A stretch of DNA of 64,000 nt, from the NCBI RefSeq assembly GCF_031200575.1, contig NZ_CP133597.1:558001-622000 (forward strand), read 5' to 3'. The translations under genes and the position numbers were made by a program. The notes under the pieces were generated by a model. The model saw nothing but the letters and a program-made list of their open reading frames with translations, ran no database searches and had not been told where the DNA came from. This document shows, piece by piece, positions 10,982 to 11,245 of the stretch (position 1 is the stretch's first letter; every line of letters begins with the position of its first letter). This stretch comes from Ferroplasma sp. Lineage in GTDB: Archaea > Thermoplasmatota > Thermoplasmata > Thermoplasmatales > Thermoplasmataceae.

Positions 10982-11123
10982 TGGAAGCACTGGGATTTGA
11001 ACCCAGATCTAAGGGTCTCTTCCATGTTTCATTGTTCCAGTCACTCATCATATATTCAGATGACCTTTAGCTAATCACAAACTGACTGGAGCCCTCTAGG
11101 ATACCTGACTACCCCATGCTTCC
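10982..11123 (-). tRNA. tRNA-Trp (CCA) with a 69-nt intron
   Basis: On the minus strand the acceptor arms GGAAGCA and TGCTTCC pair fully. The D-arm has A14, G18G19 and A21 in place, the anticodon stem is GAGGG/CCCTT with loop CT-CCA-GA, and the T-arm is CTGGG-TTCAAAT-CCCAG. Exon 1 is 11123-11086 (through G37) and exon 2 is 11016-10982 (A38 to A73), giving 73 nt after splicing; CCA is not encoded. The intron (11085-11017) sits at the canonical 37/38 site. A relaxed bulge-helix-bulge can be drawn with 32-35 opposite GAAG, with one mismatch. A TATA-like ATATTTATATC lies about 30 bases upstream. Confidence 0.92.
11017..11085 (-). ncRNA. Box C/D guide RNA within the tRNA-Trp intron
   Basis: In RNA order the intron contains box C-like GTGATTA, a guide GCTAAAGGTCAT, box D' CTGA, box C' ATGATGA, a guide GTGACTGGAACA and box D-like ATGA. 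By the N-plus-5 rule the D' guide puts its fifth base (G) against C39 and the D guide puts its fifth base (G) against C34. The second guide pairs 8 bp (TCCAGTCA) across the 5' splice junction of the unspliced precursor. Euryarchaeal tRNA-Trp introns are known to guide 2'-O-methylation at 34 and 39, so the reading agrees with established biology. Confidence 0.75.
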
Positions 11124-11245
11124 TCACTAACAGTATTATTTTTTGATATAAATATCTATAGCATAGTAGGGGGAATTGCTGGAATGCTGGAAAGATTGAA
11201 ACATGTTTGCAAATAAATTTATTAGCAATCAATGCCTTTATTTTT

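What the first reader, a model, noticed from the sequence alone, without database searches (positions are those of the whole stretch)
10982..11123. tRNA-Trp intron whose two guides match C34 and C39 across both splice junctions
The 69-nt intron holds C, D', C' and D boxes. The D guide pairs 8 bp with TCCAGTCA, spanning exon 1 and the first intron bases, and by the N-plus-5 rule addresses C34. The D' guide pairs 8 of 9 positions with GACCCTTAG, spanning the last intron base and exon 2, and addresses C39. Because both duplexes include intron bases, modification should occur before splicing. Box C (GTGATTA) and D (ATGA) are each one base off consensus.
Basis: partly seen in the sequence, partly recalled or inferred. 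Interest (0 to 1): 0.6.

Follow-up and report, generated by a model that had tools for sequence, protein, structure and literature searches.

The report
Methylation-guide RNA inside tRNA-Trp intron
The spliced-out piece of this archaeon's tryptophan tRNA gene is also a small guide RNA that directs two methyl marks onto the same tRNA; this arrangement was already known in other archaea, and here it proves to be conserved across most of the phylum, with an unusual but matched change in its protein-binding motif.

Summary
Window 11123-10982 (minus strand) is a tRNA-Trp(CCA) gene with a 69-nt intron after position 37. The intron holds boxes C, D', C' and D, a D guide addressing C34 and a D' guide addressing C39, both crossing a splice junction. 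None of 60,000 dinucleotide shuffles reproduced the full layout.

The layout is conserved in the order and in most sampled genomes of the phylum, and guide bases covary with the intron bases they pair with. A functional guide RNA is very likely. Fibrillarin, Nop5 and L7Ae genes are present.

The mechanism is not new: intronic box C/D guides for Cm34 and Um39 (or Cm39) in archaeal pre-tRNA-Trp are published, including methylation before splicing. This is a new member of a known kind.

One correction adds something. The off-consensus bases of box C (UGAUUA) and box D (AUGA) pair with each other at kink-turn position 4b:4n. That pair, reported as strongly conserved G:C in archaeal box C/D kink-turns, is U-A in 22 of 32 families here and C-G, A-U or G-C in others.

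No methylation data exist for this organism.

The parts
10982..11123 (-). tRNA-Trp(CCA) gene, G1 at 11123 to A73 at 10982, with intron
   Evidence: Rfam RF00005 46.7 bits; sequence
11086..11123 (-). exon 1, through position 37
   Evidence: 7-bp acceptor GGAAGCA/TGCTTCC, anticodon CCA
11017..11085 (-). 69-nt intron = dual box C/D guide RNA
   Evidence: conserved in relatives
10982..11016 (-). exon 2, from position 38
11089..11089 (-). C34, predicted 2'-O-methylation target of the D guide
   Evidence: faces fifth base upstream of box D
11015..11015 (-). C39, predicted 2'-O-methylation target of the D' guide
   Evidence: faces fifth base upstream of box D'
11072..11078 (-). box C GTGATTA
   Evidence: position 5 U pairs with box D position 1 A
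11062..11070 (-). D' guide CTAAAGGTC
   Evidence: 8/9 pairs with 11017-11009
11056..11059 (-). box D' CTGA
   Evidence: consensus; invariant in Thermoplasmatales alignment
11045..11051 (-). box C' ATGATGA
   Evidence: consensus; TGATGA invariant
11036..11043 (-). D guide TGACTGGA
   Evidence: 8/8 pairs with 11090-11083; covaries with intron base 2
11029..11032 (-). box D ATGA
11080..11082 (-). kink-turn stem I, 5' arm (GTT)
   Evidence: all three pairs covary
11026..11028 (-). kink-turn stem I, 3' arm (AAC)
   Evidence: all three pairs covary
11083..11090 (-). target of D guide, TCCAG|TCA, across the 5' splice junction
11009..11017 (-). target of D' guide, G|ACCCTTAG, across the 3' splice junction
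11019..11022 (-). intron strand of the bulge-helix-bulge central helix (GAAG against C32-C35)
   Evidence: 3 of 4 pairs, mismatch at C34; 3 or 4 of 4 in all 113 introns

Best explanation
The tRNA-Trp intron doubles as a dual-guide box C/D RNA. After transcription, L7Ae, Nop5 and fibrillarin assemble on the C/D and C'/D' motifs. The D guide pairs with the anticodon loop and first three intron bases and directs 2'-O-methylation of C34. The D' guide pairs with the last intron base and the 3' anticodon arm and directs 2'-O-methylation of C39. The RNA then adopts the alternative bulge-helix-bulge fold, in which the same anticodon-loop bases pair with the intron's 3' end, and is spliced. Shown here by sequence and comparison: anatomy, conservation, covariation, presence of the protein genes. 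Inferred from work on H. volcanii: the methylation itself, its order, and whether the guide acts on its own molecule or on another pre-tRNA.
For: Exact anatomy. Full layout in 0 of 60,000 shuffles. Introns of 64-86 nt with the four motifs in register in all 60 distinct relatives parsed from the order, two of them with a changed box D, AAGA. On 25 introns: kink-turn stem I covaries at all three pairs, box C5-D1 is U-A in 19 and G-C in 6 with no exception, and the covariation score exceeded all 500 shuffles. D guide duplex 99% paired, with the intron-base-2 pair C-G in 15 and U-A in 10. Over 113 introns that pair takes all four Watson-Crick forms, and the last-intron-base/guide pair is G-C 64, A-U 31. 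Model hit: one strong hit in this genome, E 2.8e-22; 139 of 150 genomes of the class; 248 of 295 of the phylum, at E up to 1. Fibrillarin, Nop5 and L7Ae present. Mechanism established for H. volcanii and reviewed in PMC2584109, PMC4090602, PMC7994747.
Against: No RNA or methylation data for this organism. In this genus the D' duplex has a mismatch at C41, and the D' guide pairs less completely than the D guide in relatives (84% of cells against 99%). The weaker model hits may be chance or other RNAs, so the genome counts are approximate.
Confidence: 0.93

Rival explanations
1. Only C34 is methylated; the C39 guide is weak or inactive in this genus because of the C41 mismatch.
For: Mismatch at C41 in the window's genus and in L012; D' duplex pairing is less complete than the D duplex (84% against 99%).
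Against: A38, C39 and C40 stay paired in all 25 introns, positions 42-45 are fully paired in this genus, and the last intron base covaries with its guide partner.
Confidence: 0.15
2. The active guide is mainly the excised (linear or circular) intron, or another pre-tRNA, acting in trans on pre-tRNA-Trp, rather than the same molecule folding on itself. This is a version of the best explanation, not exclusive of it.
For: Reported for H. volcanii in vitro (Singh 2004 as described in PMC4090602 and PMC7994747). Intron base 2 and the anticodon loop have two mutually exclusive partners, guide and bulge-helix-bulge, which a trans arrangement would separate.
Against: Not testable from sequence; cis and trans give the same conservation and both act on unspliced RNA.
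Confidence: 0.6
3. The intron is kept only for splicing and the box and guide matches are chance or an evolutionary relic.
For: A splicing motif (bulge-helix-bulge) is also present, 3-4 of 4 central pairs in all introns.
Against: Shuffle test; covariation of guides, kink-turn stem and kink-turn pair, which splicing does not explain.
Confidence: 0.02

Closest known systems
Haloferax volcanii pre-tRNA-Trp intronic box C/D guide (Clouet d'Orval 2001; Singh 2004; cited in PMC2584109, PMC4090602, PMC7994747)
   Same: Intron after position 37; box C/D and C'/D' motifs in the intron; guides to positions 34 and 39; part of the intron is in the guide-target pairing; methylation precedes splicing.
   Different: Target 39 is C here and U in H. 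volcanii; intron 69 nt against 103 nt; kink-turn pair 4b:4n is U-A in this intron (the H. volcanii pair was not compared).
Pyrococcus sR50 (intron of pre-tRNA-Trp; PMC7994747)
   Same: Intron-encoded C/D RNA that targets its own tRNA.
   Different: Not compared by sequence here.
Archaeal box C/D kink-turns surveyed in PMC5689011
   Same: U-U at 3b:3n in most introns including this one; G-A/A-G core invariant but for one intron.
   Different: The survey reports 4b:4n strongly conserved as G:C; in these introns it is U-A in 22 of 32 families, G-C in 4 (plus family f5), C-G in 3, A-U in 1.

Membership tests
Archaeal pre-tRNA-Trp intronic box C/D dual guide | Intron at position 37/38 of tRNA-Trp(CCA) | tested here: met
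Archaeal pre-tRNA-Trp intronic box C/D dual guide | Boxes C, D', C', D in order within the intron | tested here: met
   C and D each one base off consensus but compensating
Archaeal pre-tRNA-Trp intronic box C/D dual guide | D guide addresses C34 and D' guide addresses position 39 by the N-plus-5 rule | tested here: met
Archaeal pre-tRNA-Trp intronic box C/D dual guide | Guide-target duplexes include intron bases, so the target is unspliced RNA | tested here: met
   covariation of intron base 2 and of the last intron base with the guides
Archaeal pre-tRNA-Trp intronic box C/D dual guide | L7Ae, Nop5 and fibrillarin encoded in the genome | tested here: met
Archaeal pre-tRNA-Trp intronic box C/D dual guide | Cm34 and Nm39 present in the mature tRNA, dependent on the intron | not testable with these tools
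   needs RNA from the organism
Standard archaeal box C/D kink-turn | Tandem G-A/A-G pairs and a stem I next to them | tested here: met
   G-A letters in all 111 introns, A-G in 110; stem I covaries
Standard archaeal box C/D kink-turn | 4b:4n = G:C | tested here: not met
   U-A here; Watson-Crick in 92 of 98 introns outside family f5, mostly U-A; survey value from PMC5689011

The most novel reading that the evidence does not exclude
In this phylum the C/D kink-turn of the tRNA-Trp intron guide departs systematically from the archaeal rule: 4b:4n is normally U-A and is C-G, A-U or G-C in other families while staying paired, with 3b:3n also Watson-Crick in a few. If this changes how readily the kink-turn folds without L7Ae, the intron could switch between a methylation fold and a splicing fold differently from an ordinary C/D RNA.
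Probability: 0.4. Interest if true: 0.45.

Novelty: new member of a known kind. Interest (0 to 1): 0.28.

Why it matters
It confirms by covariation, across a phylum of archaea, that the intron-guided methylation worked out in Haloferax is under selection and acts on unspliced RNA. It also shows that off-consensus C and D boxes can be a matched pair, so C/D finders that score UGAUGA and CUGA separately could under-call such guides. The kink-turn variation gives a natural series for testing how the 4b:4n pair affects folding and L7Ae binding.

Tried and rejected
Chance origin of boxes and guides: rejected by shuffling. Two independent box defects: rejected, they are paired partners. A degenerate box D in one genus (AAGA; L030, L034): partly explained, since its 3b:3n becomes U-A, but L034 also loses the box C adenine of the A-G pair. 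A control set of other C/D RNAs from this genome, to see whether U-A at 4b:4n is general: the pattern search returned 10 places, of which only the tRNA-Trp intron had a box C at a fitting distance, so no control was obtained. Naming the organism: the own record seems to be left out of the named collection; an identical tRNA lies in a MAG named only Thermoplasmata archaeon. The original 2001 and 2003 papers are not held. In family f5, stem I could not be used to place box C; its 13 introns were read by the consensus TGATGA and left out of the permutation test; an earlier permutation that included them by the stem rule placed box C wrongly there and is not relied on.

Full report
What is there. 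The minus strand from 11123 to 10982 is a tRNA-Trp(CCA) gene: acceptor GGAAGCA/TGCTTCC, discriminator A73, anticodon CCA, Rfam tRNA 46.7 bits on exactly these coordinates. ARAGORN does not report it. It carries a 69-nt intron after position 37. The genome is 1,859,113 bases in one contig, and this is the only strong hit of an intron model in it. By the sizes of its closest relatives (matched to published genome sizes from my own knowledge) the organism is probably a Ferroplasma; two further genomes of the family have the sizes of Thermoplasma acidophilum and T. volcanium. The named collection confirms only 'Thermoplasmata archaeon' for near relatives.

Box C GTGATTA, D' guide CTAAAGGTC, D' CTGA, C' ATGATGA, D guide TGACTGGA and D ATGA lie in order in the intron. 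Counting five bases up from box D gives C34, and from box D' gives C39. When the interior of the intron was shuffled preserving dinucleotides, an equally good C34 guide arose in 75 of 60,000 trials, an equally good C39 guide in 5, and the complete ordered arrangement in none.

Relatives. A DNA search over 101 genomes of the order found the gene in most. From the loci and regions fetched, 77 pre-tRNAs were parsed, 60 of them distinct. All 60 have C, D', C' and D motifs with the C34 and C39 guides in register; two have box D AAGA, one of them also a changed box C. A covariance model built from 25 of them matches 139 of 150 sampled genomes of the class and 248 of 295 of the phylum at E up to 1; the weakest of these hits are uncertain. 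Fifty-three of sixty further introns taken from across the phylum were parsed, giving 113 distinct introns in all.

Covariation. On 25 order-level introns (alignment A2), kink-turn stem I varies on both sides at all three pairs, and the structure exceeds all 500 shuffles on the covariation score. In the D duplex, 99% of cells pair, and the pair between intron base 2 and the guide is C-G in 15 introns and U-A in 10. Across 113 introns that same pair is C-G 42, U-A 63, A-U 2, G-C 1 and U-G 5, with no mismatch. The last intron base and its D' guide partner are mostly G-C (64) or A-U (31) of 112. Because these are intron bases, selection is acting on pairing that exists only before splicing. Position 39 is C in 111 of 112.

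The off-consensus boxes. In the kink-turn, position 5 of UGAUGA pairs with position 1 of CUGA (4b:4n in the nomenclature of PMC5689011; the mapping of box letters to that nomenclature is mine). In this intron both have changed, G-C to U-A. In the order, U-A (47 introns) and G-C (13) occur with no mixed case. Across the phylum, outside family f5, the pair is U-A 84, G-C 4, C-G 3, A-U 1 and unpaired in 6 of 98. Collapsed to one row per family and pair type, 30 of 35 are Watson-Crick against 18.6 expected under permutation, a value never reached in 50,000. Box C was placed by stem I, without using this pair. PMC5689011 reports 4b:4n as strongly conserved G:C in archaeal box C/D kink-turns. The introns of this phylum are therefore an exception in sequence that mostly keeps the pair. 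The permutation does not fully correct for relatedness, and the number of independent changes was not counted on a tree.

Two folds. The anticodon loop has a second partner: C32-C35 pair with intron bases -6 to -3 in a bulge-helix-bulge, 3 or 4 of 4 pairs in all 113 introns, and intron base 2 also pairs with intron base -7 in most. In 79 of 113, including this one, C34 faces A or U in that helix. The guide duplex and the splicing fold are thus mutually exclusive within one molecule. That this orders methylation before splicing is inference.

Machinery. Single matches for fibrillarin (6.1e-61), Nop5 (3.0e-33) and L7Ae (9.8e-24) are in the genome.

What is known. PMC2584109 states that the intronic guide for positions 34 and 39 of pre-tRNA-Trp exists in at least 29 archaea and that methylation has to occur before splicing. 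PMC6313347 lists 'Cm34 and Um39 (or Cm39)' made with the intron as box C/D guide RNA. PMC4090602 and PMC7994747 describe action in trans by pre-tRNA or excised intron. PMC4090602 also cites, by title, a report that the intron and these methylations are not essential in H. volcanii (Joardar 2008). I therefore file this as a new member of a known kind, with the kink-turn pair as the one departure I did not find described; the literature search was limited to openly licensed papers.

Limits. No RNA data. Exon and intron parsing used rules of my own; seven of sixty phylum loci failed to parse. No other C/D RNAs from this genome were obtained as a control.

Noticed in passing
L181 (G246), L183 (G224): tRNA-Trp genes of two distant relatives carry an extra insert within the T loop, besides the canonical intron; probably a second, non-canonical intron.
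   Followed up: no
L033 (G007:C10:116351-116492): A second tRNA-Trp-like copy 1.8 kb from the intact one, with changes in the T arm and acceptor region; possibly a pseudogene that keeps the guide intron.
   Followed up: no
L030, L034, L036, L037 (genus g3): Box D is AAGA; with box C UGAUUA this makes 3b:3n a U-A pair. L034, L036 and L037 also have UGUUUA as box C, which breaks the A-G pair. Whether these guides still work is open.
   Followed up: partly
L063-L066, L068-L073, L075-L077, L081 (family f5): These introns have consensus boxes C and D but no recognisable stem I next to them, the reverse of the situation in the window's family.
   Followed up: partly
L130-L132, L134-L139, L142-L144 and others: Introns of about 97-104 nt in several other families carry an additional hairpin 3' of box D.
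   Followed up: no
window 11133-11159: The stretch upstream of the tRNA gene (TATA-like TTTATATC on the minus strand) has a 27-nt, 93% match elsewhere in the genome (C1:1718987, L002); no RNA family is found there.
   Followed up: partly
genome G000 C1:1779899 and C1:61027: Fibrillarin and Nop5 genes lie far apart in this genome.
   Followed up: no
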